A stretch of 26,725 bases of DNA from a virus: the IMG/VR virus record IMGVR_UViG_3300006752_000181, positions 1 through 26,725 of that record; one strand, 5' to 3'. The translations under genes and the position numbers were made by a program. Under the pieces are notes generated by a model. That model was not told the origin of the DNA and did not search any database. It was given only the letters and a program-made list of their open reading frames with translations. Positions within the stretch are counted from its first letter, which is position 1. Each line of letters begins with the position of its first letter. Positions 2,740-18,811 of this stretch are shown here, one piece after another.

Positions 2740-5700
2740 ATGGCTGAACAGACATTTAAGTCTCCAGGATTCTTTGAACGAGAAATAGAAATAATTAGCA
2801 GACCATTATTTAGAAATTATACAACACCAGTGGGTGTCATCGGGTCAACACAAAAAGGACCAGCTTTTGTACCAACAACAGTCACTTCATTTCAAGAGTA
2901 CGTAAGAGTTTTTGGACAACCCGAACAAGATAGAGATTCTGCACATGCTGCTGCAGAATTCTTTTCTAACGGTGGTAAATCTCTTACGATGTGTAGAGTT
3001 TTAGGCGCAGGTCACGGATCAAGCTCAGTAAACGCAGGCTTTAAAGTAGTAGGAACTGCAGGACCAGGAGGTGCTGGTTTAAATACTAATAGAGCTTCTG
3101 GCGCAGTTCAATTTATTGTTGCAGATCATACAGTAAATAATGCAGAGCACGTTACACTTGGGCTATTAAACGATAATAACTCGATTACGCTAGCTGCAGA
3201 TCAAGATCCAAGTGATGGCGTCTTAACTACAGGAACAGAGCTTAATGCGCAACTTATTAGAGCAATGATTTTTATGGAAAAAGATCATTCAATGCTAATA
3301 TGCGAAGTAGGAGCAGCTGTTAGTAATGCTGGTGATAACGATGTTGCAACTGCATCATCTTCTAGATTTAAATTAATTATAGTAAATAAAGCTGACGAAG
3401 ATGCAGAAGTTGCATCTTATGTTGTTTCTTTAGATCCTAGCGATGATGCTTATATATCTAAAGTTTTAAATACTGATAGCTTTAAACATCAAGAAAAGTT
3501 ACATTATTTATATGCAGATTTTCCTGTAGATACATCTGTTGCTGATGTTGCGGGTAATAAAGTTGCTATATTACGAGGAAAAGATTCGTATTTAAATTAT
3601 TACGGTGACTTTTCTAGCAAGTTTACTGCAGCACAAACGCCAATGTTTATCTCACAGCCCTACGGTGAAAGAGAATATGAACTTTTTAAATTCGAATCAA
3701 TTGACGATGGTGAGTTTGGTTCAGGAAAATATAAAGTAAGTATTTCTGATTTAAGAGCTTCTACAGATCCTAATGATAAGTTTGGAACATTTTCAGTTCA
3801 AGTTAGAGACTTATACGATTCTGATTTAAATCCTACAGTTTTTGAATCATTTGAAAGAGTATCTTTAAACCCAAACTCTGACAATTATATTGCTAAAGTT
3901 ATTGGTGATCAAAAGATTTATTTAAACTTAGCAACAGACGATGAAAACGAAAAAAGATTAGTTAGAGAAGGAACTTATGAGAATCAATCAGAAAGAGTTA
4001 GAATTAAAATCTCTGATGATGTTTTAATGGGTGAAGTACCTGAAGATGCTCTTCCTTTTGGATTTAGAGGTATTCCTACTTTAAAAACAACAAGCACGCT
4101 TAAAGACGGACAATCAAGCAGAGATGCTAGTTCAAATTATCTTATTGGTATTGACGATTCATCAAATACACTTGTTGCTGCTAATGCTGGATCTAACAAG
4201 TTATTATTATCAGTTATACCTCCATTACCTTATAGAATGAAAGTTACATTAGGAGATATGAGAAAGCCTGATGGTAAGTATTTTCAAACTTATTTAGGTC
4301 AAGTTTTAGGTAGTGATGGATTAGAGTTAAATAGTGAATCTGTTAATACTAATTTACATTGGGGATTAAATGCTAGCAGAATAACAGATATTCATAATCC
4401 TAATAGAGCTACTGATATTGATTCTAATAGGCTAGCAGGTAACCTTGTTAAAACTTTAGGGAAAGTTGTTAATGTTCTAACAAGTGGATTAGATAGTGAT
4501 ACAATAAATAATAATAAATTTAGTTTAGCAAAAGTTGCTTTAAAGGAATCATCTTCTTCTACAGTTTCTGGAACTGTTAGTGATGTTTATTTAGAAGCAG
4601 TATATATTAGAAACGCTGAAGTTTCGAGTAATATTTATGATTCAGCTTCTGGTCAAATTAAAATGTCACTAACACAAGATCCTTTTACAACAGAAGGTGC
4701 AACTAATAGCAATGAAATAAGATTGACTTTAGCTGGTCTTTTAAAAGAAGACAAGGTTAAATTTAACAAGTACAATAGAATGGCTAAATTTACAGCGCCT
4801 ATGTATGGAGGTTTTGATGGGGTAAATATTATGGATAAAGATTCATATTACTTTACAGACAAATCTGCATCTGTAGAATCAGGTGGTCATGGTGTAAATT
4901 ATACAAGTGGTTTGTCTGGAACTTCATCTGGAATGAGTGGTGAAAGATTATCAAACAATTCTATAAACGCTTTTAGAAGTGCTGTTAAGTTAATGACAGA
5001 CGAACTTGTTATAAATCATAATGTATTGGTTTTACCTGGAATAAGAGATGATCTAATTACAAGCTACGTATCTGAAAGAGTTAAAGAGTATGGTAAAGCT
5101 ATATATTTAATGGATATTCCACATTATGATTCTTATGATACTAGAATATTTTTAGATTCAAGTGGAGTAACATCATTAGTACCTGATGCTGATGCTACTT
5201 CTACAAAGTTTAATGGAAAAGATTTAGATAATAATTATGTAGCAACTTATTTCCCAGACGTTACAATATTAGATCAGGGTGACGATTTAGGAGCGAGTCA
5301 ATTTAATCCTAGACTTGTTCATGTACCTGCTTCTGTTGTTGCTTTAGGTGCTCTTGCGAAAACAGATAATGATTCTCAACCTTGGTATGCCCCTGCTGGT
5401 TTTTCTAGAGGCGCTTTAGCTTCTGTTGCATCTGTTGATTCAAGATTAAATGCTGCTGACAGGGATACATTATATGAGTCTAGAATTAATCCTATTGCTA
5501 GTTTTCCCAATAATCAATTTGTTATTTTTGGTCAGAAAACAACTCAAGTAGCTAGAACTGCTTTGGATAGAGTTAATGTTAGAAGATTAATGATTGAGAT
5601 AAAGATGCGAATTGAAAAGATTGCTTTAGGATTATTATTTGCTCAAAATGACGCTCAAACAAGATCATCTTTTATTTCTAGCGCAACTAGAGAGTTAAAT

Positions 5701-5883
5701 GATATTCAGATAAATTCTGGTATTGAAGATTTTAGAGTTATAATGGATGAAACAAATAATACTGACGAGGATGTTGATAATAATAGACTTAACGGAAAGA
5801 TTATTGTTGTGCCTACAAGAGCAGTTGAATTTATAGCAATGGACTTCATTATTACAAATAGTGGCGTAGAATTCCCATCATAA
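2740..5883 (+). CDS. Tail sheath protein 1 (gp18-like)
   Basis: 1047 aa, much longer than T4 gp18 (659 aa). Sheath subunits surround the tube and contract on infection. The N-terminus has SPGFFERE, then the GSTQKGPAFVP signature (KGPAFVP at residues 39-45), a FQEYVRVFG helix and an FFSNGG-x5-CRVLG strand, all typical of sheath domain I. The C-terminal domain has PWYAPAG followed by RGAL (about 882-892), the FGQKT turn (about 930-934), an LDRVNVRRL helix and a final strand VVPTRAVEFIAMDFII, the region forming the inner-core linkages in known sheaths. The middle (about 100-840) holds protruding domains shared with sheaths 2 and 3, for example SDNYIAKVIGD. It is the shortest of the three paralogs and the most likely principal sheath subunit, by inference. 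Confidence 0.93.
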   Translation: MAEQTFKSPGFFEREIEIISRPLFRNYTTPVGVIGSTQKGPAFVPTTVTSFQEYVRVFGQPEQDRDSAHAAAEFFSNGGKSLTMCRVLGAGHGSSSVNAGFKVVGTAGPGGAGLNTNRASGAVQFIVADHTVNNAEHVTLGLLNDNNSITLAADQDPSDGVLTTGTELNAQLIRAMIFMEKDHSMLICEVGAAVSNAGDNDVATASSSRFKLIIVNKADEDAEVASYVVSLDPSDDAYISKVLNTDSFKHQEKLHYLYADFPVDTSVADVAGNKVAILRGKDSYLNYYGDFSSKFTAAQTPMFISQPYGEREYELFKFESIDDGEFGSGKYKVSISDLRASTDPNDKFGTFSVQVRDLYDSDLNPTVFESFERVSLNPNSDNYIAKVIGDQKIYLNLATDDENEKRLVREGTYENQSERVRIKISDDVLMGEVPEDALPFGFRGIPTLKTTSTLKDGQSSRDASSNYLIGIDDSSNTLVAANAGSNKLLLSVIPPLPYRMKVTLGDMRKPDGKYFQTYLGQVLGSDGLELNSESVNTNLHWGLNASRITDIHNPNRATDIDSNRLAGNLVKTLGKVVNVLTSGLDSDTINNNKFSLAKVALKESSSSTVSGTVSDVYLEAVYIRNAEVSSNIYDSASGQIKMSLTQDPFTTEGATNSNEIRLTLAGLLKEDKVKFNKYNRMAKFTAPMYGGFDGVNIMDKDSYYFTDKSASVESGGHGVNYTSGLSGTSSGMSGERLSNNSINAFRSAVKLMTDELVINHNVLVLPGIRDDLITSYVSERVKEYGKAIYLMDIPHYDSYDTRIFLDSSGVTSLVPDADATSTKFNGKDLDNNYVATYFPDVTILDQGDDLGASQFNPRLVHVPASVVALGALAKTDNDSQPWYAPAGFSRGALASVASVDSRLNAADRDTLYESRINPIASFPNNQFVIFGQKTTQVARTALDRVNVRRLMIEIKMRIEKIALGLLFAQNDAQTRSSFISSATRELNDIQINSGIEDFRVIMDETNNTDEDVDNNRLNGKIIVVPTRAVEFIAMDFIITNSGVEFPS

Positions 5884-5926: not shown

Positions 5927-8900
5927 ATGGCTGGACAAAAACAAGGATCAGCAAGAGTAACACTAAGAGAAATTGACTTATCACAAGTAAGCTCTACTTC
6001 TATAGAGCCGCAAGGCGTTCCAGCTGCTATTGTTGGTACTTCACATAAAGGTCCTGCCTTTGTACCTAGAACATTTGCCAATATGCAGCAGTTTCAAGAA
6101 GTTTTTGGAAGCATGACTTCTAGAGGTAGACTTAAAAATTCAAATTTATATGCACCTTTAGCTTTTAACGAATGGATGAGAAATTCACAAGCAGGAACTT
6201 TTATTAGAGTTCTTGGTGTTGGTGATGGAAGTTCTGCAGCAACAGGATCTGGATTTGTTGTAGGAAGTGAACAAGTTCAATTAAATCCAGAAGACTCTGC
6301 TAATAGATCAAAAGTATTCAAAAACAAATATGCATCAATAGATGATAACAGAAGAACAAAAGCTACAGAAATAGCAAGAACTCACATGCTTGGTTGCTTT
6401 ATGAAAGATTCAACAGGAAGTACATTTCTTCAAGATTCTGGAGTTCAAACAGCACAAGCAGCTGGATCATTAAAAATAACTTTAAGTAATGATACTCATA
6501 TAACAGATGGAAGTACTTTAAAGTTAACTTTTAATACTGATCCTAACAATTCTTCTACAACAAAAGTAGTCACTTTTACTTTTTCAGACGGAGAAGCACT
6601 AAATGATAATGATAAAGTTATTAAAGCTGATGGTTCTAACGCTGTAGTACTTACTGATTTAAGAGATGCTATCAATGGAACTACTGTAGCAGATGATAAT
6701 TCAACACGTTTAGATGCACATTTAATAGCATCTTTAACAGGAAGTACTTTAACAATTTCTTCTCAACACTCTTCTTTAGGAACAGCAACAAATAATATGA
6801 CTGCTGAGTCTGACATGAAATCAGATGGTGTAGTTACAGATATTAATGTTGGTGGTAAAACAGCATCTGAAGTTAGTCAAACTGTGAGTTTTGGTTCTGC
6901 TGGAAATACTGCTGCAAGATTTGATATAATGAAAACTGCAGGAACTTCTGCAAATGTTTCTGCAAATGAAACAATTACTTTTAACCTAATTGAAAATGAT
7001 GGAGATGCATCACTTACAGAAAAAGGTGTTTCATATCACTTTAAAGCTGCAGAATCTATCGTGATAACTCAAACAAGTGGAGGAAATACAACTGCTGATT
7101 TAGTTACAGGTAAATATGTCATTAAGTCTAATAATAATGTATGGGTTCAAATTGGATCTACACTTTTAGAATCTTTAAGAAATTTAAAAACTGCAATTGA
7201 CCGAGTAGCACCTTCAGGTGGTACAGCTACTCTTCATCAAGGCTTATCTACAACAACATTAGATACACAAAGTACTAAGTTAACTATCTTTCAAAAAAAT
7301 CTTGGTGAAGATGGCAATGCTGATCCTGATGACTCTCCAAATATTACAGCCTTTACTCTGTCTAATATTACACTTGTAAATGCTTCTAGTCAAGCAAACG
7401 CTGTTTTATCTACAACTAATGAAAAGACTAAAGCAGACTTTGCAGCATGTCATTTTTATGGTGGAACAGATAGCTCTGAAAAGAAAAACTTAACAATTAA
7501 GTTAACTGGAAATCCTCGTGTTGGTGATAAATTAGTTATTAGGACTCAAAGAGTTGATGATGTTGATGGATGGCATAAACTTCACTTATTATTTGATGTA
7601 ACCAGAGACGATGAAAATGGGCAAAACTCAGGACAACCAAGAAAAGTTAAAATAGGTGTCGACCTACAGGAAACACTTTATAATTTAAGAAACGAAATAA
7701 TTGACCCTAGCAATAAAGCTGGTATTTCTAGTGTTCATCTATCTTTAGATGTTACAGTTGATGACGCAAATGATTCTTTAACATTAACATATAAAAACAA
7801 TAATGCAGCAAACGATACTTTTGTTGCTGAAGGTAGTGCTCAAGGTGGTTTAAGAGGTGACACGACTTGTGTAGGAATTGAAATGGGTGAATATGCTACA
7901 TTTAGCAATACTAGCGGATTTAGCTTAGTTGGAAATCACGGGCCAAAAACAGTTAACTTTACAGGAGGAGGAGGAGCAGCTGCTCCAGTAATTCGTGGTA
8001 TTTTAATGGCTCCTCAAGGTGTTAAACCAACATTAAATGTTACAGAAGGAAATACTGTAAAAAATAACTATGTATCTTATTCTGAAGCATCTGCTGATGT
8101 TACAAGTAATATTTCTAAAGAAGTAAACATAAGTGTTTTTGGTAATACTACAGGTAGTAATTTAGTTGGATATTCTGTAGGTGATGTAACTAATAATACA
8201 TTTAAAATAGTATTAAATGGATTTCTTAACGCTGAACAGTCTTCTGTTTATACATGTTCTTTTAATCCTCAAGATGACAATTACTTTGCTAAAGTTTTAA
8301 ATACAGACCCAACTAAAATAGAAGAGCTTGGTCATTATTTATACGCAAATTGGGATATTGAAGCTGCTGTAGCACAAGTTAGTAATAGCGGTTTATTAAG
8401 AGGTGGTGCTCCAATAAATGGAACAGATTACACTAACATGACAGGATTTCTTATATCAAAAGATTCTAGTGATACTGATTATGAATATGAAAAGTTTGAG
8501 GGTAGATTTGGAACGGCAAAAACTCCTTGGATAGTTTCTCAATATAACGGAGGAAATGATACGTCAAATAGAGGAACTGATGGTGTACATAAGTTATTTA
8601 AATTACATATTTTAGATGATGGTAGTAGTGGAAATAGTTTATATAGAGTTTTAATATCTGACTTAAGATATGAAAAAGATGATTATGGAACATTTTCTCT
8701 TACTTTAGAAGAATACAGTTCAGATTCTATATTAGGAACTCCTGTTGTTACTTGGAAACAATTAAATTTAGATCCTAATAGTAGAAATTATATCGGAAGA
8801 GTTATAGGTGATAAATATACATATTACGATTTCTCTTCTCAAAAATTAAGAACAAAAGGTAATTTTGAAGTAAGAAACGAGTATGTAAGAGTTGAACTAT

Positions 8901-10483
8901 CAGATGAACTAAAAAGAAATACAGTTAATATCGATGCTTTGCCTACAGGTTTTAAAGGACACGGTTACTTACATACAACTAGCGAGTTTACTGAAGAGTT
9001 TACAGATGGCGATGATCAATTAGTATTTTCAGATAGTTCAAATAATAAAATAAACAAACTTAATGACATAAAAGTTTTACCTCTTTTTTACGTAACATCT
9101 ATAAGTAAAAAAGTTACTGATAGTGTTTATGAAGCTACTAATGATTTAGCTTGGGGTGTCAAGCTAGGTATTAAGAAAAACGTTAATGAAGATACTAATC
9201 CTAAAGAGCACATAGAAAATGAATTCAATAAATCTCTTTTGAGTTGGGCAAAGTTTTATCCTTCGCTTGTTTATAAAGAAGATGATGCTGATACTTTTCA
9301 AAATTCATTCTTTAGTTTAGAAAAGATTAAAATACCTGCTGGAGGTATTAGCAGTGATTTTATTACTTCTTGGGGTCAAGCACGTTATAATAGAGATGGT
9401 GTTTATGGAACAGGTGGTAGATTTGTTAGTATTTCAAAGGATGCAAAGGGAAGTAATGTTAAATATCTTAAGTTTAGATGTTTATTCCAAGGAGGATGGG
9501 ATGGAGTTAATATATTTGACAAAGATAAGTCTGAGTTAAATGGAGCTGCTGCATCTAGAGAGAGTAGAGACGAAAAAGGAACAAGTCAAGTAACAGGTCC
9601 TACAGTTATGTCTTATAGAAAAGCAATTGATGTGTTATCAGATAAGTCTGCTGCAGAATTCCAATTATTAGCTATTCCTGGGCAAAGAGCTTTTTCTGTG
9701 ACTAATTATGCAATTACAGCTTGCGAGACAAGATTTGATGCAATGTTAGTAATGGATATAGAACAAAAGGGAGCAAATAGATTTATAGAGGGAGTTAATG
9801 ACGAAGAATTACCACACGTAGGAAATACGATTTCTGAGTTTGCTGTTAGATCTTTGGATTCTTCTTTTGCAGCAGCTTATTTCCCAAATGTTTTAATAAG
9901 AAGAACATCTGATTCTGCACCTGTTGAAGTTCCTCCAAGTGTTGCAATGATTGGCGTTATGAGTCGTAACGATACTTTAGAAGCACCTTGGGCTGCTCCT
10001 GCTGGTTTAACAAGAGGTACCCTTACCAATTCTATAGACTCAAAGGTTCAAATGAACAGAGAGCTTCTGGATGATCTTTATGACAATGATATAAATCCTA
10101 TTTACGTTCCAGCTGGTCGACCAGGTGAAGTTTATGCATTTGGACAGAAAACATTGCTTCAAAGTGCATCAGCACTTGATAGAATAAATGTTAGAAGACT
10201 TCTTATTGATATTCGTAGAAAAGTTAAGAAAATTGGTGAGAGTTTATTATTTGAACCTAATCGTGAATCAACATTGGAAAGATTTTCTGCATTAGTTGAA
10301 CCAATTATGCAAGACGTTCAAAGAAGAAGAGGCGTTGTTAGATATAAAGTTTTGATTGATACAACAACTACAACACAAAACGACATTGAAAATAACACAA
10401 TTAGAGGCAAAATTTATTTACAACCAACAAAATCTGTAGAATTTATTTCTCTTGACTTCGTTGTTGCAAATACAATTCAATAA
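5927..10483 (+). CDS. Tail sheath protein 2 (gp18-like) with a repeat-built insertion
   Basis: 1518 aa, among the longest for a sheath-type protein. The core is complete: KGPAFVP at 41-47, a FQEVFG helix, an IRVLGVGDGSS strand, a middle domain homologous to sheaths 1 and 3 (FGTAKTPWIVSQ; LNLDPNSRNYIGRVIGD), PWAAPAG at 1354-1360 then TRG, FGQKT at 1405-1409, LDRINVRRL, and a closing strand PTKSVEFISLDFVV. Between about residues 172 and 685 there is extra sequence not present in sheath 1, made of three beta-rich units (annotated separately), probably exposed on the outside of the tail. With the C-terminal signatures intact it should be able to join the sheath lattice. Whether it mixes with sheath 1, forms a separate zone or is a minor component cannot be told from the sequence. 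Confidence 0.92.
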   Translation: MAGQKQGSARVTLREIDLSQVSSTSIEPQGVPAAIVGTSHKGPAFVPRTFANMQQFQEVFGSMTSRGRLKNSNLYAPLAFNEWMRNSQAGTFIRVLGVGDGSSAATGSGFVVGSEQVQLNPEDSANRSKVFKNKYASIDDNRRTKATEIARTHMLGCFMKDSTGSTFLQDSGVQTAQAAGSLKITLSNDTHITDGSTLKLTFNTDPNNSSTTKVVTFTFSDGEALNDNDKVIKADGSNAVVLTDLRDAINGTTVADDNSTRLDAHLIASLTGSTLTISSQHSSLGTATNNMTAESDMKSDGVVTDINVGGKTASEVSQTVSFGSAGNTAARFDIMKTAGTSANVSANETITFNLIENDGDASLTEKGVSYHFKAAESIVITQTSGGNTTADLVTGKYVIKSNNNVWVQIGSTLLESLRNLKTAIDRVAPSGGTATLHQGLSTTTLDTQSTKLTIFQKNLGEDGNADPDDSPNITAFTLSNITLVNASSQANAVLSTTNEKTKADFAACHFYGGTDSSEKKNLTIKLTGNPRVGDKLVIRTQRVDDVDGWHKLHLLFDVTRDDENGQNSGQPRKVKIGVDLQETLYNLRNEIIDPSNKAGISSVHLSLDVTVDDANDSLTLTYKNNNAANDTFVAEGSAQGGLRGDTTCVGIEMGEYATFSNTSGFSLVGNHGPKTVNFTGGGGAAAPVIRGILMAPQGVKPTLNVTEGNTVKNNYVSYSEASADVTSNISKEVNISVFGNTTGSNLVGYSVGDVTNNTFKIVLNGFLNAEQSSVYTCSFNPQDDNYFAKVLNTDPTKIEELGHYLYANWDIEAAVAQVSNSGLLRGGAPINGTDYTNMTGFLISKDSSDTDYEYEKFEGRFGTAKTPWIVSQYNGGNDTSNRGTDGVHKLFKLHILDDGSSGNSLYRVLISDLRYEKDDYGTFSLTLEEYSSDSILGTPVVTWKQLNLDPNSRNYIGRVIGDKYTYYDFSSQKLRTKGNFEVRNEYVRVELSDELKRNTVNIDALPTGFKGHGYLHTTSEFTEEFTDGDDQLVFSDSSNNKINKLNDIKVLPLFYVTSISKKVTDSVYEATNDLAWGVKLGIKKNVNEDTNPKEHIENEFNKSLLSWAKFYPSLVYKEDDADTFQNSFFSLEKIKIPAGGISSDFITSWGQARYNRDGVYGTGGRFVSISKDAKGSNVKYLKFRCLFQGGWDGVNIFDKDKSELNGAAASRESRDEKGTSQVTGPTVMSYRKAIDVLSDKSAAEFQLLAIPGQRAFSVTNYAITACETRFDAMLVMDIEQKGANRFIEGVNDEELPHVGNTISEFAVRSLDSSFAAAYFPNVLIRRTSDSAPVEVPPSVAMIGVMSRNDTLEAPWAAPAGLTRGTLTNSIDSKVQMNRELLDDLYDNDINPIYVPAGRPGEVYAFGQKTLLQSASALDRINVRRLLIDIRRKVKKIGESLLFEPNRESTLERFSALVEPIMQDVQRRRGVVRYKVLIDTTTTTQNDIENNTIRGKIYLQPTKSVEFISLDFVVANTIQ
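6464..6871 (+). repeat. Insertion unit A in sheath 2 (protein-level repeat)
   Basis: Residues about 180-315 of sheath 2. The order of elements is: a leading strand (SLKITLS), strands LKLTFNT and VVTFTFSDG, a helix LTDLRDAIN, a strand GSTLTISS, and a closing Gly-Gly motif (INVGGKTA). Units B and C show the same order. Large marine phage structural proteins, as I recall, often carry beta-sandwich repeats of this layout, with a helix ending in AIN, an LTI strand and an F-x-GG end. The similarity is at protein level only; the DNA is not a direct repeat. Confidence 0.5.
6914..7480 (+). repeat. Insertion unit B in sheath 2 (protein-level repeat)
   Basis: Residues about 330-518 of sheath 2. It has a leading strand RFDIMK, strands ETITFNLI and VSYHFKA, a helix LLESLRNLKTAIDRV, a strand TKLTIFQ and a closing motif CHFYGGTDSS. 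It is longer than units A and C because of extra loops between the strands. The order of elements is what supports the repeat; residue identity between units is low. Confidence 0.5.
7481..7981 (+). repeat. Insertion unit C in sheath 2 (protein-level repeat)
   Basis: Residues about 519-685 of sheath 2. It has a leading strand NLTIKL, strands KLVIRTQ and LHLLFDV, a helix LQETLYNLRNEI, a strand DSLTLTY, and a closing Gly-rich stretch VNFTGGGGAAAP before the sheath core resumes at APVIRGILMAPQG. That re-entry point resembles sheath 3 (DVIMCPQGVFPTL), which helps place the right edge of the insertion. Confidence 0.5.
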
Positions 10484-10531: not shown

Positions 10532-11020
10532 ATGGCTGAAACATTATCAGTTACAGAAATGATACCAAATAAGTTTGAATCAAAAAGAGGAAATAGATGG
10601 GTATTTGCTATTGAAGGTATAGACGCTTTTCTTATGAAGACAGCTAATAGACCTACATACAGTACTTCACCTCAAACTATTAGATGGATAAATAGTGAAA
10701 GACATGTTGCAGGAAGAATGACTTTTAATGATATTCAATGTACTTTACATGATCCTATCGCTCCAAGTGGCGCTCAACAAGTTATGGAATGGGTTAGAAC
10801 TCATCATGAAAGTGTTAGTGGTAGAGCTGGATATGCAGACTTTTATAAGAGAGATTGTCAACTTAAGCTTCTTGATCCTGTAGGAACTGTAATTGAACTT
10901 TGGGATATTAAAGGAGCATTTATTACAAGTGCTAATTTTGGTTCATTATCTTATGACAACGAAAACTTAATGGAAATTTCATTGACTCTTAAGTACGACA
11001 ACTGTGTTCTCCAGTACTAA
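10532..11020 (+). CDS. Tail tube protein (gp19-like)
   Basis: 162 aa, essentially the length of T4 gp19 (163 aa). Tube subunits stack as hexameric rings inside the sheath and form the channel for DNA. Features typical of the family are: an early NRWVFAIEGIDAFLMKTANRP stretch interrupted by loops (about residues 21-41), a middle segment with a GRMTFNDIQCTLHDP strand followed by an S-G-A-Q-Q helix, and a C-terminal beta pair with WDIKGAFITSANFGSLSYD and a final ISLTLKYDNCVLQY strand. These are the alternating strands of a tube/Hcp-like beta barrel. It sits between sheath 2 and sheath 3. It is the only tube gene in the window, although there are three sheath genes. Confidence 0.93.
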   Translation: MAETLSVTEMIPNKFESKRGNRWVFAIEGIDAFLMKTANRPTYSTSPQTIRWINSERHVAGRMTFNDIQCTLHDPIAPSGAQQVMEWVRTHHESVSGRAGYADFYKRDCQLKLLDPVGTVIELWDIKGAFITSANFGSLSYDNENLMEISLTLKYDNCVLQY

Positions 11021-11108: not shown

Positions 11109-14100
11109 ATGAATAGAGTTGAAAGACATAGCGATATACCTTCGCTTAAAGGTGTTATTAATCCTAGTTTTAATATTGATACTTTATGTTCTATAGGCGT
11201 TTCTCATAAAGGACCTGCATTTGTTCCTACGCAAATAGCTTTACATGAAGAAGATGACAATGTTAAAAATACATTCGAAAACATTTTTGGATTACAAGAA
11301 TTTAATAAGTTTAAAAATTTAAGAGACGAATATTCTTGTAATGTTGACTCACAAGGTTATGAATCTTCAAGGGTTTGGTTTGAAAACGGCGGGACACAAT
11401 TTTCGTTTACTAGAGTTTTAGGTTTAGGTACTGGAGTTAAAAATGCTGAAGGTGTTTATGAAGGTAGTGGGTTTAACTTGTCAGAGCCTATATATAGAAA
11501 CTCTATTTTAAATAACTCTGTTTATGAAAATCCAAATAGTGTTTCTGGAGGAATAGAAGGATCTGTAAGTTTTATAATAAAAGATATGGAAAATATATCT
11601 ACTACTAATTTAGATCCTTTTAAAAACTACTTAAATGAACTTTCTATTTCAGGTACAAGTTCAAAATTTATAACAGACGTTATAATGTGTCCCCAAGGTG
11701 TTTTTCCTACTTTACATTCTAAAGATTCAAATAATGATCTTACAATAAACTTTAATCACTTTGATCCACAACCTGTCTTAATAGAAGAAGCAAATTTACA
11801 ATTATCTACAAAACAAGCAACATTTAACTTTTCTTCATCTGGTTTATTAGGCTATCCTTTTTCATATCAATCTAATGTTAATACTCCTACTTTTTCAACA
11901 AATTTTTATATACTATTGAATGGTTTATCTAACGTCAGTAATGCTAACAATGTTATTCAGATTACAGAGTTTGATATATTAAGATCACAAAGTAACAAAG
12001 AATTTAAAGAATCACTTTCTAAAAATTATTATTCTAGTAGAATACAAGAAAAAGGCCATAAATTTTATTGCAGTTTTAATACAAATAGAACTTTAAATCT
12101 AAAAAATCCAACATCAAATCAAAACAATGTAAGTATATTTACTGCATTAAAAAAACAAACTGTTGAATCTGCTGCTGGTGATAATATTGTACCTGATTAT
12201 AATGAATTTAGGGACAAATATCAAGTTGCAAAAACTCCTTGGATAGTTTCACAGCCTTACAATAGAAATGATTTGCAAACAAATAGAGTTAATATATCAA
12301 AAAACGTTTATAGACTTTTTAGATTTTATTCTTTAGATGATGGTGAAATAGGAAATAGATTTAGAATAAAAATAGCGCCTAAACAAATAGGTGATATATA
12401 CGAGAAAAGGTTCTCGCGATTTGACGTTTTTATTTTTGAATATAACTTGATTGATAATACATATTCTTTATTAGAGACTTACAGAGATTTAAATTTAAAC
12501 CCTGATGATATGGATTATATTGGCAGAAGAATAGGTACTAAAAAAACTTATTATGATATATCATCTAAAAAAGTTATAACTACAGGTCTTTTTGAAAATG
12601 TTAGTAAAAACGTTAGAGTAGAATTAAGCGAAGATGTTATAAATAAAAAGTTAGAAGTAACATATATTCCTAGTGGATTTGAAGGTTATCCACATATAGA
12701 ATTTAATAAAATTGCTTTTAAAAGCTATCAGGTAAATGATATAACTGAATTAGATGATTCTACTAAGTTTGATAATTATTTTAGTAATATTAATCAGTTA
12801 CCTTTAACTTATAATCCTAATTATTCTATAGATAAAAGTTTGCCTGAAGATATAGAGTATATTAATTCTTGGGGTTCTCTATTCTATAATATAAAATCAA
12901 AAGAAGAAATTTACAAAAATATTATTCTCTATAATCAAAATACTTCATCTAATAGCACTTATCTTTATAAACAAAACATCTATGAATTTAGAGATAGTAA
13001 TGAAAACGATAAACATTTTTCACCTCACTACTTCTATACAAAATATTTTCAGTCAAATAAAACTAGTCCTTCTAAAAATGTATGGGTTGAAGAATCTAAT
13101 TGGTTAAATTCTTTCTTTCATCTAGAAAAAATTGCTTATCCTCAAAAAAGTAATAGTTTAGTATTAACTAATTTATTAGAAAAATCTATTTATATCAGAT
13201 CAGGTAAAACAATAGATAGTAGTTTACATTCAACAGCTTATACAGCTTATAAATATTTAAATATTGACGAAGTACTTGATAGCAATAAAAACTCAAGATA
13301 CAATATAGATTCTTTCAAACTCACATTTGATGTATTTACTTATGGAGGTTTTGATGGAACAAATATATTAGATAAAGATAAAAAGTTTTTAAATAATAAT
13401 GCTATAACTAGAGAAAACAATAGAGAATCAAATACTGTAACAAAAGAATCTTATAAACACGCTATAGACTTAGCAACTGAATTTTCTAATTGTCTTGGTG
13501 ATATATTTATAATACCTGGTATTAGAGATAAAGAAATATCAAAAAAGATAATAAGAATATCTAATGAAGAAGAAAGATTTATTTATTTAACTGATATACA
13601 AAATGTTGTAACTACAGAAGAAATATCAGGAGACTTTTTTGTTATAAGTGATGAAGTCAATATAAATAGAGAAGATACAATAATAAAAAATGTATCTAGC
13701 GGTAAAATAGAATATAGAGAAAAAGTTATAAACAACTATGATCTGTATTATAGGAATTTTAATTTATACGATTATTCCAGTAAGTACTTTGTCCCTTTAT
13801 TGGGTGAAATAATAGATAATGAAAGAAAATTCATACATTGTCCAACTGTGTATATTTCTGGGCTTATGTCACAAACAATTAGTGATCCTATAAATAGTAT
13901 TGACTTTCAATATGATTTAGGAAATGAATTAATAGATAATGAAAACTTTAAGTATTCTGAAGAGTTTTTTGAAGATAGATTAAAAACTTTAAAAGAAAAC
14001 GGTTTAAATATTATTATTGATGACAATTCAGAAGGATTAAGACTTTATACTTCTAATACTACGTTTGGAATAAGAAGTTCCGAATATAGACAACTAGAAT

Positions 14101-14474
14101 CTGTTAGAGCAATAAATCATGTTAAAAAAGTTTTAGAAAGCGAATTAATTCTAAATAGAAACGGAATATTGTTTGATCTAAATTCTAGTACTAGTAACTC
14201 TTATGTTGTTGCTGAAAATAAAATAAGGGCAATAATGGAAAATTTAAAAAGCCAAAATATAATAGAAGATTTTCAAGTATCTGTACCTAATCCTAGCATT
14301 ACAGGCGTTAACGAAGATCTATTAAACAATATATTAAAAACAAAATTATATATTCAGCTAAAAAGTTCTAGAAATGAAACAAATCCTATACAATTATTTA
14401 CATTAAATGAGCTTAGCAAAGAAATAAAAAGTTTAACAAATCTTGCTGAAGATATAAAATTACTTTCTGTATAA
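11109..14474 (+). CDS. Divergent tail sheath paralog 3 (gp18-like)
   Basis: 1121 aa. Its sheath origin is shown by GVSHKGPAFVP (residues 30-40), a WFENGG-x6-TRVLGLG strand, a middle domain close to sheath 2 (YQVAKTPWIVSQPYN; LNLNPDDMDYIGRRIGTKKTYYD), and YGGFDGTNILDKDK, which matches GGWDGVNIFDKDK of sheath 2. The C-terminal domain is eroded: the PW-APAG-RG and FGQKT signatures of sheaths 1 and 2 are missing, and a Tyr/Asn/Glu-rich stretch stands in their place before a helix ESVRAINHVKKVLESELI and a final strand KLYIQLKSS. It lies after the tube gene with a weak ribosome binding site. It may be a low-copy sheath-like part, for example at the baseplate or neck end; that role is inference. Confidence 0.85.
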   Translation: MNRVERHSDIPSLKGVINPSFNIDTLCSIGVSHKGPAFVPTQIALHEEDDNVKNTFENIFGLQEFNKFKNLRDEYSCNVDSQGYESSRVWFENGGTQFSFTRVLGLGTGVKNAEGVYEGSGFNLSEPIYRNSILNNSVYENPNSVSGGIEGSVSFIIKDMENISTTNLDPFKNYLNELSISGTSSKFITDVIMCPQGVFPTLHSKDSNNDLTINFNHFDPQPVLIEEANLQLSTKQATFNFSSSGLLGYPFSYQSNVNTPTFSTNFYILLNGLSNVSNANNVIQITEFDILRSQSNKEFKESLSKNYYSSRIQEKGHKFYCSFNTNRTLNLKNPTSNQNNVSIFTALKKQTVESAAGDNIVPDYNEFRDKYQVAKTPWIVSQPYNRNDLQTNRVNISKNVYRLFRFYSLDDGEIGNRFRIKIAPKQIGDIYEKRFSRFDVFIFEYNLIDNTYSLLETYRDLNLNPDDMDYIGRRIGTKKTYYDISSKKVITTGLFENVSKNVRVELSEDVINKKLEVTYIPSGFEGYPHIEFNKIAFKSYQVNDITELDDSTKFDNYFSNINQLPLTYNPNYSIDKSLPEDIEYINSWGSLFYNIKSKEEIYKNIILYNQNTSSNSTYLYKQNIYEFRDSNENDKHFSPHYFYTKYFQSNKTSPSKNVWVEESNWLNSFFHLEKIAYPQKSNSLVLTNLLEKSIYIRSGKTIDSSLHSTAYTAYKYLNIDEVLDSNKNSRYNIDSFKLTFDVFTYGGFDGTNILDKDKKFLNNNAITRENNRESNTVTKESYKHAIDLATEFSNCLGDIFIIPGIRDKEISKKIIRISNEEERFIYLTDIQNVVTTEEISGDFFVISDEVNINREDTIIKNVSSGKIEYREKVINNYDLYYRNFNLYDYSSKYFVPLLGEIIDNERKFIHCPTVYISGLMSQTISDPINSIDFQYDLGNELIDNENFKYSEEFFEDRLKTLKENGLNIIIDDNSEGLRLYTSNTTFGIRSSEYRQLESVRAINHVKKVLESELILNRNGILFDLNSSTSNSYVVAENKIRAIMENLKSQNIIEDFQVSVPNPSITGVNEDLLNNILKTKLYIQLKSSRNETNPIQLFTLNELSKEIKSLTNLAEDIKLLSV

Positions 14475-14491: not shown

Positions 14492-15328
14492 ATGAATAGT
14501 GATATTAATAAGCCTATTGACAAGTCAGCTTACGAAGGAATAAAAAGAGTTGACGTTATGAAAGAAGATTTTGGAATTGATATACCCATTGAAAGTGTTC
14601 CACTTCCATCTAAAGGTATTATATATGATCCTTCTTCAAGTCTGTATAATAAAGAAACTTTAGATATTAGACCAATGACAGCAAGAGAAGAAGATATTCT
14701 AATGTCAAGAGTGCTTATTAAAAATGGATCTGTATTAACAGAACTTATTAAGTCATGTCTTGTTGATAAGTCAATTGATCCTGATGCAATGATTAGTGGT
14801 GATAGAAATGCTATTTTAACTTCTTTAAGAATTACAGGATATGGAGCAGATTATGAAGTTTCTGTAGACTGTCCAAAATGCTCTTTTACTAACAAAAAAA
14901 CATTTAATCTTTCAGAACTAAAATTAAAAAGATTAGAAATAGATCCTGTTGAACCTGGACAAAATTTATTTGAAGTATCTTTGCCTGTTACTAAAAAGAC
15001 TTTAAGAGTAAAGTTCTTAACTGGTCATGACGAAAAAGAAATGACTATTACTAGTGAAAGAAGAAAAAAGCAAGGATTTAAACAAAGTTCTACAATAACA
15101 GATAGATTAATAAAATCTATTGTTTCTATTGAAAGTATTAAAGATAGAAATAAGATATCTTTATTCGTAAAAAATATGCCTGCTAGAGATTCTTTGGCTC
15201 TTAGAAAATTTTTAGACTTGCATGAGCCTGGTGTTGATATGTCATCTTGGATTACTTGTGATTCTTGTTTAGAAGAAAGTGAGGTTATTATTCCTATGGG
15301 AACTTCATTTTTTTGGCCTGACACCTAA
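14492..15328 (+). CDS. gp26-like baseplate hub assembly protein (T4_baseplate family)
   Basis: 278 aa. T4 gp26 (208 aa) is needed for building the central hub of the baseplate; proteins at this position before the tape measure have been proposed to act as tail assembly chaperones. Family signatures are VPLPSKGIIYD (36-46), DIRPMTAREEDIL (58-70) and a GS-x-LTELIKSCL helix (79-90). Two cysteine pairs, CPKC (127-130) and CDSC (256-259), probably bind zinc. Codons 273-275 (TTT TTT TGG) lie in a run of seven T residues, and a second frame open across this point encodes a further helical stretch (next entries), so the 278-aa product may be only the short form. Family call is good; the exact T4 counterpart is less certain. 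Confidence 0.8.
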   Translation: MNSDINKPIDKSAYEGIKRVDVMKEDFGIDIPIESVPLPSKGIIYDPSSSLYNKETLDIRPMTAREEDILMSRVLIKNGSVLTELIKSCLVDKSIDPDAMISGDRNAILTSLRITGYGADYEVSVDCPKCSFTNKKTFNLSELKLKRLEIDPVEPGQNLFEVSLPVTKKTLRVKFLTGHDEKEMTITSERRKKQGFKQSSTITDRLIKSIVSIESIKDRNKISLFVKNMPARDSLALRKFLDLHEPGVDMSSWITCDSCLEESEVIIPMGTSFFWPDT

Positions 15329-15500
15329 TGACAAAGAATATCTTTTAGAACAGATATACGTTTTAATAAAACATCTAAGGTTTACTTATTATGCAGCCTA
15401 CAATATTCCTGTTTGGCAAAGAAATTGGTTTATAAAAAGACTTCAAAAAGAAATAAAAGAAAAAGAAGAATATTACAAAAACCAAACTCAAAATAAATAA
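15279..15500 (+). CDS. Out-of-frame C-terminal extension of the gp26-like protein
   Basis: This frame (+1/-2 relative to the gp26-like gene) is open from 15279 to the stop at 15498-15500 and contains no ATG. Its only conventional start is GTG at 15279, without a Shine-Dalgarno sequence at proper distance and inside the gp26-like coding region. Past the T run it encodes about 61 residues: DKEYLLEQIYVLIKH, then FTYYAAYNIPVWQRNWF, then a charged Lys/Glu helix. The pattern of a helix followed by an N/M-P-V/T-x-x-R-x-W/Y-F motif resembles, as I recall, short segments encoded at or after the end of gp26-like genes in other T4-related phages. It is most simply read as the tail of a frameshift fusion of about 335 aa. 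A separate small protein started at GTG is the alternative. Confidence 0.6.
   Translation: MRLLFLWELHFFGLTPNDKEYLLEQIYVLIKHLRFTYYAAYNIPVWQRNWFIKRLQKEIKEKEEYYKNQTQNK
15308..15314 (+). promoter_or_regulatory. Seven-T run: candidate programmed frameshift site
   Basis: Seven consecutive T residues are read as TTT TTT T(GG) in the gp26-like frame, five codons before its stop. Moving +1 or -2 here enters the frame that stays open to 15500. A homopolymer of this kind lets the tRNA re-pair after slippage. Phage Mu uses a -2 shift and lambda a -1 shift in chaperone genes at the same position, upstream of the tape measure. Loss of a single T would also fuse the two frames, so a sequence error or a real indel must be excluded. 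Confidence 0.5.
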
Positions 15501-15545: not shown

Positions 15546-15806
15546 ATGAAAAATAAAAAATTAGAAGAAGTATCTTTTGCATTACATAAAATTGCAGCTG
15601 AGTATATAACAGGAAAAACAAATAAACTTTCAGAAGGAAATTACAATATTAAACAAGAAATATTTGTTGAATTGACTAATGAATGCAAAAAACTAAAAAA
15701 TGCACTTGAAACAAACGATATTCAAAAAATAAGTGAAATTATAAAAAGAAAAAATTATTTAGCTGAAAAATTTTATAACTCAACTTGCATTAAATGGCTT
15801 TTATAA
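15546..15806 (+). CDS. Small helical protein before the tape measure (unknown)
   Basis: 86 aa, not recognised. It is predicted by eye to be almost wholly alpha-helical, with heptad-like spacing of Leu/Ile in ECKKLKNALETNDIQKISEI and many Lys/Glu/Asn residues; there is no signal peptide or membrane segment. GAGAG at 15535-15539 lies 6 nt before the ATG and supports the start. It lies between the gp26-like gene and the tape measure, where phages usually place tail assembly chaperones, so a role in tape measure handling or hub assembly is plausible but unproven. Base composition is like that of its neighbours. It could also be a small structural protein of the hub. Confidence 0.6.
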   Translation: MKNKKLEEVSFALHKIAAEYITGKTNKLSEGNYNIKQEIFVELTNECKKLKNALETNDIQKISEIIKRKNYLAEKFYNSTCIKWLL

Positions 15807-15823: not shown

Positions 15824-18811
15824 ATGGCAAATGGTGATGATACAACAAATAATAGTAATAATGAACAATCTACTACTGATTCTCAAAACAAAATAAATAC
15901 AGGAGATCAAAAGCTAGATAAATCTTTAATGTCAATGAACAATCTCATTGTAAATAATTGCAATGAGATAATAAAAAAAATAGATTCGAAATTAGGTAGC
16001 CCAACAAAAAATCAACAAGATCAAATAAAACAACTAACTACTGCACTTATGAAACAAATTGAAATAAATAACCAAACAAAAGGAATACGTGTATTAGTTC
16101 AAAATTATTTTGGAAATAACGAATATCCAGGAGCAAGTAGTAAGCCTAGAATTATTAAAGCTATAGGACCAGATCAAACTACTTCTCCTATTTCTACGCA
16201 ACAAAAAAAATCACAACAACAAACATTACCAGGAGTTGTTAAAAAATCTCAACAAGGAAATAGTACTTTGGACTATATACTTGGATTAACTGGTTTAGGT
16301 GGTGTTTTAGCTGCTGATAGACTTGTGACTGGAGGAGGACTTACTAGATTTGTAGGAAATATGATCGGGAAAGGTATTGATGCATTTGCTATAAAACCTA
16401 CAAAAAGATTACTTGAAAAAATAAAAAGATATCCAATGCAAAAAATAGAAGAAGGAGCATCAAAACTTTATAATTTAAAAGATATGATGATAGAAGTAGC
16501 TAATGAAGTCAATACTTTAATTAATCAAACTATACCTATGACTTTAGAAAAATTTAAAGAAGAGTATTCTGTAGGTGACAAGTCTGTTTTAGGTCAAGCT
16601 TTTAAAAATGTTGGTACATTAGGAGAAAGAATATACACTCAATTTCAAGACATGAAAGGTGAATATTTTCAGCTTTATGAAACTGTAGAAAATTTCATGG
16701 AAGCTTTAAACAAGAATATAACTTCTTTAGGAAGTCTTGGAGAAATATACGGCAGGTCTTTGTCTGATAATGAAAAATTAGCAAATCATTTTGAAAGAGC
16801 AAGAAGAGCTTTAGCTTTAAGTGACGATGACATTAACAACTTAGCAAAAATATCAATCACAAGAAACGAATCAATATTTGAAAGTTTTAGTAGAATTCAA
16901 AATGCATCAGATCAAGCTGCGCAAAAGTTTAATTTAAATCAAAAATCTTTAGTAAAAGATGTTAATAGTTTAAGAAAAGACTTTGTTAATTTTGGACATA
17001 TGAGCGAAAAAGAATTGTTTAATTTAGTTGGAAGATTTAAACAATTAGGCGTTGCTGTTTCTGATTTAGATAAGTTAATGGGTTTTGATACTTTTGAAAG
17101 TGCTGTTGAAAGTGCTTCACAACTTCATCAAGCTTTTGGTATGAATATAGATGCTTTAAAGTTAATAAAAGCTGAAAACCCTGGTGAAATTGCTGATATC
17201 TTTGTTAATGCATTTAAAGATACAGGAACAACATATGATCAATTAAACTTTAGACAGAAAAGATTTTTAAGTCAACAAACAAGAATGTCTGATGACATGT
17301 TAAGACTTATGATGAACAACAGATTATCTTTTGAAGACGCTCAAAAGGAATTTGGAAATATAGATCCTCAATCTGATTCAAAATTGCAAGATCAAATAAA
17401 TCAATTTAAGGCTCTTGATCATTCTATACCAAAAACAAAAAAGATAAAAACATTTGCTGACGATACTGCTGCACTTACTGCTGGATTAAAAGACGCAATG
17501 AGAAATAGTATAGGTCTTAAAAATTCTTTTGTTAATTTATCAACAGCTTTTTCAAATATACATACAAAGTTTACTTCTGATGGAGAATTTAGGCAGAAAC
17601 TTGAAAAATCATTTTCTGATTTAAGAAACTACATTGATAGAATAACAAAGTCTGTAGTTACTCCTAACTTTGAAAAAATAATGGATCAATTACCTGCAGT
17701 TATTTCTGGGTTTGGATTGAGAATGTCGCCAGAATTAACAAAAGATCAAAGAAATAAAGTAAAAAATTCTTTAGATGATCAATTAGAAATTATTGCACAA
17801 AATATGAATAAACACTTTGCTAAAACAAAAAGTTTAATAATAGATACAATGTTGGAAGGCGGAGGTATTGCAATAAGATCATTTTTGCCTTTTATGCAAT
17901 CTGTTGTTGACGATGTTAAAAAGACTATGGATTCTATGAAAGATCCAGGTAGTGATTTTATTAACATAAGAAAACTTTTTAAAAAGTTTAATTTTAAAAA
18001 AAATAGAAAAATAGAAGATAAAATAATAAAATTAGCAAATAAAGGTACAAGCGTCATTATCGATATAGGCGTTAATGCTTTTAATTTATTGTTACAAGGA
18101 GCTATACAAGGAATTGGGAAAGGAGTGCCTTTAGCTTTACGAATGTCTTATAAAATTTTTATGTCATCATTAAAATCTATTGGATCATTATTAAATCCAT
18201 TTGGCGGAAGTGGGAATAATAAACAAAAACAACAGACTTTAAGTAATTATCAAAAATCACAGCTTGATGCTTTAAATAGATTAGCAAAAACTTATCAAAA
18301 TCAAAGCGACATGACGTTACGTGCAAGTCAAATGAGAACAAAAGAAGTCAGCAAGTCTCATCAGTTTTTTCAAATGTTAAGGGACTATACATCAACAAAA
18401 AATAGACAATTTGATGCTAGTGACTTTTTTAACATGAAAAAAGAAGCGAAAGCGAAAGCTTTGTTTAAATTTTTAGATAATTTATCAGAATATGAATTAA
18501 AAAATTTAATTCCACATCATAAATTTAACAAAATGAATATTCATGGACGTCGACACAAAAGATACATGCAAAATGTTTTGTATGATAGTGATTTTAATTA
18601 CAATCAGCAAGATGAAGCTTTCAAGTATTTTAAAGCAATGTTTGACGAGCTTAATGAGCTTAGAAAAGAAAACAGTAATTCTAAAAATGGCGACGTTAAT
18701 GTTACAATACCTGTATTTATACGTGATGAAAATGGTATGTTGCTATTAGTAGGGCAAGAAAGAGCTAGATTTAATGCAAATCAACAAACGACAGTGATTC
18801 AAACAACATAG
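15824..18811 (+). CDS. Tail length tape measure protein (gp29-like role)
   Basis: 995 aa. Tape measure proteins run through the tube lumen, set tail length and reach the hub; T4 gp29 has 590 aa. Visible parts are: a polar, disordered N-terminus (1-35), a helix and a Gln-rich linker (to about 145), a Gly/hydrophobic stretch LGLTGLGGVLAADRL (about 153-167), a long helical centre with LARRAL-like repeats and a segment FKQLGVAVSDLDKLMGFDTF followed by SASQLHQAFGMN that is frequent in tape measures of T4-related aquatic phages, a second Gly/hydrophobic part (about 740-800, VIIDIGVNAFNLLLQGAIQG), and a C-terminal beta stretch VNVTIPVFIRDENGMLLLVG. If the usual about 1.5 angstrom per residue held, the tail would be roughly 150 nm. 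Its ribosome binding site is weak. Position after the gp26-like gene fits. Confidence 0.85.
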   Translation: MANGDDTTNNSNNEQSTTDSQNKINTGDQKLDKSLMSMNNLIVNNCNEIIKKIDSKLGSPTKNQQDQIKQLTTALMKQIEINNQTKGIRVLVQNYFGNNEYPGASSKPRIIKAIGPDQTTSPISTQQKKSQQQTLPGVVKKSQQGNSTLDYILGLTGLGGVLAADRLVTGGGLTRFVGNMIGKGIDAFAIKPTKRLLEKIKRYPMQKIEEGASKLYNLKDMMIEVANEVNTLINQTIPMTLEKFKEEYSVGDKSVLGQAFKNVGTLGERIYTQFQDMKGEYFQLYETVENFMEALNKNITSLGSLGEIYGRSLSDNEKLANHFERARRALALSDDDINNLAKISITRNESIFESFSRIQNASDQAAQKFNLNQKSLVKDVNSLRKDFVNFGHMSEKELFNLVGRFKQLGVAVSDLDKLMGFDTFESAVESASQLHQAFGMNIDALKLIKAENPGEIADIFVNAFKDTGTTYDQLNFRQKRFLSQQTRMSDDMLRLMMNNRLSFEDAQKEFGNIDPQSDSKLQDQINQFKALDHSIPKTKKIKTFADDTAALTAGLKDAMRNSIGLKNSFVNLSTAFSNIHTKFTSDGEFRQKLEKSFSDLRNYIDRITKSVVTPNFEKIMDQLPAVISGFGLRMSPELTKDQRNKVKNSLDDQLEIIAQNMNKHFAKTKSLIIDTMLEGGGIAIRSFLPFMQSVVDDVKKTMDSMKDPGSDFINIRKLFKKFNFKKNRKIEDKIIKLANKGTSVIIDIGVNAFNLLLQGAIQGIGKGVPLALRMSYKIFMSSLKSIGSLLNPFGGSGNNKQKQQTLSNYQKSQLDALNRLAKTYQNQSDMTLRASQMRTKEVSKSHQFFQMLRDYTSTKNRQFDASDFFNMKKEAKAKALFKFLDNLSEYELKNLIPHHKFNKMNIHGRRHKRYMQNVLYDSDFNYNQQDEAFKYFKAMFDELNELRKENSNSKNGDVNVTIPVFIRDENGMLLLVGQERARFNANQQTTVIQTT

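What the first reader, a model, noticed from the sequence alone, without database searches (positions are those of the whole stretch)
15279..15500. Candidate programmed frameshift extending the gp26-like hub chaperone
A 7-T run (15308-15314) lies five codons before the stop of the gp26-like gene. The +1/-2 frame is open through it for a further 61 codons, has no ATG, and its single GTG has no ribosome binding site. The extra segment carries a helix and an IPVWQRNWF motif, a coherent protein end rather than random sequence. The location, upstream of the tape measure, is where lambda (-1) and Mu (-2) use frameshifts to make two chaperone forms. A two-form system in a T4-like gp26 would be a notable parallel.
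Basis: partly seen in the sequence, partly recalled or inferred. Interest (0 to 1): 0.7.

Follow-up and report, generated by a model that had tools for sequence, protein, structure and literature searches.

The report
Tail chaperone gene with +1 frameshift
In this phage, ribosomes reading a tail-building helper gene very probably sometimes skip one base at a fixed spot, so one gene makes a short and a long helper protein; the spot is kept in about a hundred related viruses, and the trick is known from other phages but was not annotated in the relatives examined here.

Summary
The gp26-like gene (14492-15328, Pfam T4_baseplate) is followed in the +1 frame by a 61-codon extension (15315-15500). 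In 100 loci (window included; 75 after removing close copies), two of them cultured phages, the gene always ends just past (T/C)TT_TGG, and the +1 frame is open for 55-90 codons in every complete one. The extension evolves as protein, lacks a usable start and is predicted as a confident three-helix domain. Variants TTT CTT TGG and TTC TTT TGG (16% of loci) argue against a read error, a -2 slip and polymerase slippage. Best reading: a +1 programmed ribosomal frameshift with UUU or CUU in the P site and UGG in the A site.

The short form resembles tail assembly chaperones of HK97 and YqbN in predicted structure. The extension is homologous to -1-frame extensions of cyanophages and jumbo phages and, through the cyanophages, to the C-terminus of T4 gp51. 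The pair thus corresponds to lambda G/GT. That T4 gp26/gp51 are tail assembly chaperones is already published (Vladimirov 2022, read only through citing papers). What looks new is the +1 signal and the change of shift direction within one family. Frameshifting is inferred, not measured.

The parts
14492..15328 (+). Short form (278 aa) of the gp26-like tail assembly chaperone, stop TAA at 15326-15328
   Evidence: PF12322 E 1.6e-17; phrog_150; chaperone-like fold
15308..15319 (+). Slip region TTT TTT TGG CCT; P-site TTT 15311-15313, A-site TGG 15314-15316
   Evidence: Core conserved in 100 of 100 loci; nucleotide profile
15315..15500 (+). +1-frame extension, 61 codons plus stop, predicted three-helix domain
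   Evidence: Protein-level selection; model pLDDT 92; homology to -1 extensions
15824..18811 (+). Presumed tape measure protein gene (995 aa), likely client of the chaperone
   Evidence: Position only; the gene at this place is annotated tape measure in immuto, LIS04 and SP-15
10532..11020 (+). Tail tube protein gene, presumed client of the long form
   Evidence: phrog_4542 E 9.6e-28

Best explanation
The gp26-like gene encodes a tail assembly chaperone made in two forms from one start codon. Most ribosomes stop at 15328 and give the 278-aa short form. A fraction pause with UGG 15314 in the A site; the tRNA-Phe in the P site slips from UUU 15311 onto the overlapping UUU 15312 (+1), and translation continues in GGC CUG ACA for 61 codons, giving a 335-aa long form (..GTSFFGLTPNDKEY..IPVWQRNWF..). 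Both forms presumably bind the tape measure protein, and the long form's C-terminal helical domain recruits tail tube subunits, as lambda gpG and gpGT do. Shown: conserved split frames, conserved slip sequence, protein-level selection on the extension, homology of the extension to C-terminal parts of related chaperones. Supported but modest: chaperone-like fold of the short form. Inferred: that the ribosome shifts, its efficiency, +1 rather than -2, the pause at UGG, and the division of labour between the forms.
For: 100 loci with in-frame (T/C)TT_TGG, always split the same way, +1 frame 55-90 codons; 13 more from genome contigs. P-site codon choice against each gene's own codon usage: log10 p about -16 over 75 representatives treated as independent. 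TTT CTT TGG (10 loci) and TTC TTT TGG (6 loci) allow +1 re-pairing on UUU but not -2 re-pairing. CUU, CCC and UUU are reported as the most slippery +1 P-site codons at the RF2 site (PMC10885494). Extension under purifying selection: differences 854/573/1611 at codon positions 1/2/3 over 50 pairs. One of 75 representatives has an ATG with a Shine-Dalgarno core in the +1 frame; 25 have no candidate start. The extension profile matches jumbo-phage -1 extensions (E 5e-7) and cyanophage -1 extensions (E 1e-6), and the latter match the T4 gp51 C-terminus (E 3e-11). In two bacterial loci the same two parts form one uninterrupted ORF. Tail assembly chaperones are the only two PDB entries above Z 3 for the short form.
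Against: No experiment: no junction peptide, reporter or ribosome profile. No conserved RNA structure or close Shine-Dalgarno stimulator was found. Two other in-frame YTT_TGG sites exist in the window, at 10898 and 26594, so the hexamer alone may not be enough. The direct profile match of this extension to T4 gp51 is weak (prob 16%); the link runs through cyanophages. Z values of 5-6 are modest and Foldseek's own E-values were not significant.
Confidence: 0.88

Rival explanations
1. A -2 ribosomal slip on the T run, as in phage Mu, reaches the same frame with one extra Phe.
For: Seven T residues in the window allow UUU to re-pair two bases back; 84 of 100 loci have TTT TTT TGG.
Against: 16 of 100 loci have TTT CTT TGG or TTC TTT TGG, where -2 re-pairing fails but +1 works.
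Confidence: 0.06
2. Transcriptional slippage on the 7-T run yields mRNAs with six U, so a normal ribosome reads the long form.
For: A homopolymer is present in most loci.
Against: Loci with CTTT or TTCTTTT break the run yet keep the split; the window has 38 A or T runs of 7 or more, so slippage at this length would be damaging in many genes (inference).
Confidence: 0.04
3. The extension is a separate downstream gene, translated from its own start or by re-initiation after the stop.
For: Mel-JY01, 121Q, XbC2 and cyanophages are annotated with a second small CDS; in all 80 cyanophage loci an ATG lies just after the stop.
Against: In the window's clade 25 of 75 representatives have no start at all and one has an ATG with a Shine-Dalgarno core; a separate gene would not need to conserve the slip sequence or keep its frame open back through it; in T4 gp51 and two bacterial loci the parts are one chain.
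Confidence: 0.03
4. Sequencing or assembly error: the true gene has six T and is one uninterrupted long gene.
For: Reading one T fewer would join the frames; long forms exist as one ORF in T4 gp51 and in two bacterial loci.
Against: The same split occurs in dozens of independent assemblies and in cultured phages Mel-JY01 and immuto, including variants with no 7-T run.
Confidence: 0.01

Closest known systems
Lambda gpG/gpGT tail assembly chaperones (-1 frameshift)
   Same: Two forms from one gene upstream of the tape measure gene, the longer reached in a shifted frame near the end of the short one
   Different: Shift is +1 at (U/C)UU_UGG instead of -1; the protein is of the T4 gp26 family, with no sequence match to lambda G tested
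T4 gp26 and gp51
   Same: Both are PF12322/phrog_150; gp26 ends where the window's short form ends (profile position 235 versus 233 of 282) and gp51 runs on to 280, so they are a short and a long form
   Different: T4 uses two separate genes. The relation is published: Vladimirov, Gautam and Davidson 2022, doi 10.1016/j.virol.2021.11.003, known here only through PMC10885494 and PMC12846349
Cyanophage gp26/gp51 (P-SSM2, S-PM2) and jumbo phages 121Q, PA5oct, Munch, XbC2, Atu_ph07, RAS14
   Same: Homologous gene ends at the same place with an open shifted frame carrying a homologous extension
   Different: They use the -1 frame with the canonical heptamer T_TTT_TTC (T_TTT_TTT in RAS14); cyanophages add a GAGGG box about 8 nt upstream
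Phage Mu (-2) and haloarchaeal virus HSTV-2 (+1) chaperone shifts
   Same: Same kind of device; +1 use in a myovirus has precedent (PMC5009743)
   Different: Slip sequences differ; here the signal is (U/C)UU_UGG (Mu and HSTV-2 sites not compared base by base here)
RF2 (prfB) +1 frameshift, CUU_UGA
   Same: P-site CUU or UUU re-pairs on UUU before an A-site codon that starts with U
   Different: A-site is a sense codon (UGG), and no Shine-Dalgarno stimulator is seen close upstream

Membership tests
Tail assembly chaperone pairs made by programmed frameshift | Gene lies between tail tube and tape measure genes | tested here: met
   Tube at 10532-11020; the large gene downstream is annotated tape measure in immuto, LIS04, SP-15. 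In the window a 1121-aa gene lies between tube and chaperone
Tail assembly chaperone pairs made by programmed frameshift | Frame-0 stop within a conserved overlapping open frame that lacks its own start | tested here: met
   100 loci; start codons
Tail assembly chaperone pairs made by programmed frameshift | Conserved slippery sequence in the overlap | tested here: met
   (T/C)TT_TGG in 100 of 100
Tail assembly chaperone pairs made by programmed frameshift | Chaperone fold of the short form | tested here: inconclusive
   Top two PDB chains are tail assembly chaperones, YqbN Z 5.8 and HK97 Z 5.4, next 2.8; Foldseek E-values not significant
Tail assembly chaperone pairs made by programmed frameshift | Both proteins made, absent from the virion, needed for tail assembly | not testable with these tools
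   Needs experiment
T4 gp26/gp51 family (PF12322, phrog_150) | Match to the family profile above its cut-off | tested here: met
   64.4 bits, cut-off 24.5
T4 gp51 C-terminal domain | Homology of the extension | tested here: met
   Transitive: extension to cyanophage extension E 1.3e-6, cyanophage extension to gp51 C-terminus E 2.6e-11; direct match weak, prob 16%
+1 programmed ribosomal frameshift | P-site tRNA can re-pair one base on, where -2 cannot explain all cases | tested here: met
   UUU or CUU to UUU possible in all 100; -2 not possible in 16
+1 programmed ribosomal frameshift | Measured +1 product | not testable with these tools
   Needs reporter or mass spectrometry

The most novel reading that the evidence does not exclude
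Within one homologous tail assembly chaperone family the direction of programmed frameshifting has switched: a large, mostly uncultured clade uses +1 at (U/C)UU_UGG, cyanophages and jumbo phages use -1 at U_UUU_UUC at the same place, and T4 has two paralogous genes instead.
Probability: 0.8. Interest if true: 0.6.

Novelty: new variant of a known kind. Interest (0 to 1): 0.5.

Why it matters
Two-form tail chaperones govern tail assembly in long-tailed phages, and the T4 group was once listed as the exception (PMC5009743). This family reaches the same pair by +1 shift, -1 shift, duplication or fusion, a natural series for asking how recoding signals change direction. It also gives a simple rule, a gp26-like gene ending just after (T/C)TT_TGG, that would correct annotation in many environmental phage genomes where the extension is missed or called a separate hypothetical protein.

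Tried and rejected
Homopolymer read error, -2 slip and transcriptional slippage were each set against natural sequence variants and fall short. RNA structure near the site: mean z -0.4 to -0.9, no more than a trend. Direct tblastn of the 61-aa extension in phages and plasmids: no match. Foldseek of the extension model against the PDB: no useful match. In Gram-positive relatives (SP-15, LIS04, vB_SagM-GXN1, L209) I first took NCC_CGA as the slip site; L209 (ACC AGA) does not fit, and TTT at the same aromatic position as elsewhere is as good, so the exact site there is open. LR756511 (L004) does not fit cleanly and was left unclassified. Vladimirov 2022 itself could not be read. No tree was built, so the number of direction switches is not known.

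Full report
What is there. The gene at 14492-15328 codes for a 278-aa protein of the T4 gp26 family (PF12322, 64 bits against a cut-off of 24.5; phrog_150). It ends ..TCA TTT TTT TGG CCT GAC ACC TAA. The +1 frame is open from 15273 to 15500, so a ribosome that moved one base forward at 15311-15314 would add 61 residues. In a 28% GC genome with 38 A/T runs of seven or more this would be weak evidence on its own.

Relatives make it strong. A protein search and a profile search of the viral contig collection, plus named phages, gave 100 loci, the window included, that could be read through the junction. Every one has an in-frame (T/C)TT_TGG with the frame-0 stop 9-18 nt after the slip point, and every complete one has 55-90 further codons in the +1 frame. 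The forms are TTT TTT TGG (84), TTT CTT TGG (10) and TTC TTT TGG (6). Another 13 loci in metagenome-assembled bacterial or archaeal genomes show the same arrangement; many of those contigs are probably phage. Against each gene's own codon use, the P-site choice has log10 p about -16 over 75 representatives; relatedness makes that figure optimistic.

The extension is protein. Over 50 pairs of relatives the differences in the extension fall 854, 573 and 1611 on codon positions 1, 2 and 3 of the +1 frame, and dN is mostly far below dS. A model built on 45 extensions is a three-helix domain at mean pLDDT 92. Usable starts are absent: 25 of 75 representatives have no ATG, GTG or TTG before the domain, and one has an ATG with a Shine-Dalgarno core.

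Which shift. With TTT CTT TGG or TTC TTT TGG a +1 move lets the P-site tRNA re-pair on UUU, while a -2 move does not re-pair; both forms also lack the 7-T run that polymerase slippage or a read error would need. CUU, CCC and UUU are reported as the most slippery codons for +1 at the RF2 site (PMC10885494). The A-site is UGG in all 100 loci, whereas elsewhere in these genes UGG makes up 40 of 26,921 codons. No conserved RNA structure was found. That UGG causes the pause is inference.

What the protein is. The AlphaFold model of the short form (pLDDT 87) was aligned with Foldseek's candidates; the only two chains above Z 3 are the HK97 tail assembly chaperone (2ob9, Z 5.4) and YqbN (3klu, Z 5.8), the latter a tail assembly chaperone relative by my own knowledge. 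Foldseek's own E-values were not significant, so this is support, not proof. In T4, gp26 and gp51 both belong to this family. gp26 stops at profile position 235 of 282, where the window's short form stops (233), and gp51 continues to 280. That T4-like phages carry a short gene and a longer fused gene for their tail assembly chaperones was published by Vladimirov and colleagues in 2022; I could read it only through papers that cite it. An earlier review called T4 the exception to the conserved G/GT frameshift (PMC5009743).

The family uses several solutions. In cyanophages P-SSM2 and S-PM2 and in 80 of 80 related contigs the gene ends in T_TTT_TTC with the -1 frame open (two are cut by contig ends or shorter), and a GAGGG-like box lies about 8 nt upstream, the layout known from -1 sites such as dnaX. 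Jumbo phages PA5oct, 121Q, Munch, XbC2 and Atu_ph07 also show T_TTT_TTC with an open -1 frame (RAS14: T_TTT_TTT). The +1-clade extension profile matches the jumbo extensions (E 5e-7) and the cyanophage extensions (E 1e-6); the cyanophage ones match the T4 gp51 C-terminus (E 3e-11); the direct comparison of +1-clade extension and gp51 is weak. Of 45 extensions, 25 match PF20546 (DUF6760) at E up to 1, best 1e-7. In two bacterial loci beside tail tube and Pvc16-type genes, gp26-like and DUF6760 parts are one uninterrupted reading frame. Taken together, the same long product appears to be reached by +1, by -1, by duplication or by fusion.

Verdict. It is a new variant of a known device: the +1 signal (U/C)UU_UGG and the change of direction within one gene family were not found in the papers searched, but that search covers only open-access papers. 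The remaining gap is direct measurement of the long product.

Noticed in passing
L118 1465-2196, L119 1450-2193, L128-L207: Marine T4-like cyanophages: gp26 ends in a GAGGG-like box, about 8 nt, TTTTTTC, then stop, with the small annotated 'gp51' in the -1 frame, in 80 of 80 contigs; annotated gp51 is probably the frameshift extension. An ATG directly after the stop is also invariant.
   Followed up: partly
L233 859-1623, L234 859-1623: Loci from the Bacteroidota draw, beside gp19 tube and Pvc16_N genes, carry gp26-like and DUF6760 parts in one uninterrupted ORF, suggesting a fused tail assembly chaperone in contractile injection systems.
   Followed up: partly
L232, L235, L236: Other bacterial loci have a short N-part ORF followed by DUF6760 in the -1 phase, possible further frameshift or coupled pairs; no slip site was identified.
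   Followed up: no
window 2740-5883 and 5927-10483: Two large adjacent genes both match tail sheath families (phrog_23 E 3.5e-56; Phage_sheath_1C E 3.9e-7), so the window may encode more than one sheath protein; the 1121-aa gene at 11109-14474 has no match.
   Followed up: no
L219 and L220 (NHDW01000006.1): The same locus occurs near both ends of a 305,838-base contig binned as a Methylococcaceae genome, which looks like a terminally redundant phage in a bacterial assembly.
   Followed up: no
window 10898 and 26594: Two other in-frame YTT_TGG sites occur in window genes, so the hexamer alone may not be sufficient for shifting.
   Followed up: no
window 15546-15806: An 86-aa ORF between the extension and the presumed tape measure gene has no family match; small ORFs sit at the same place in Mel-JY01, immuto and SP-15.
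   Followed up: no
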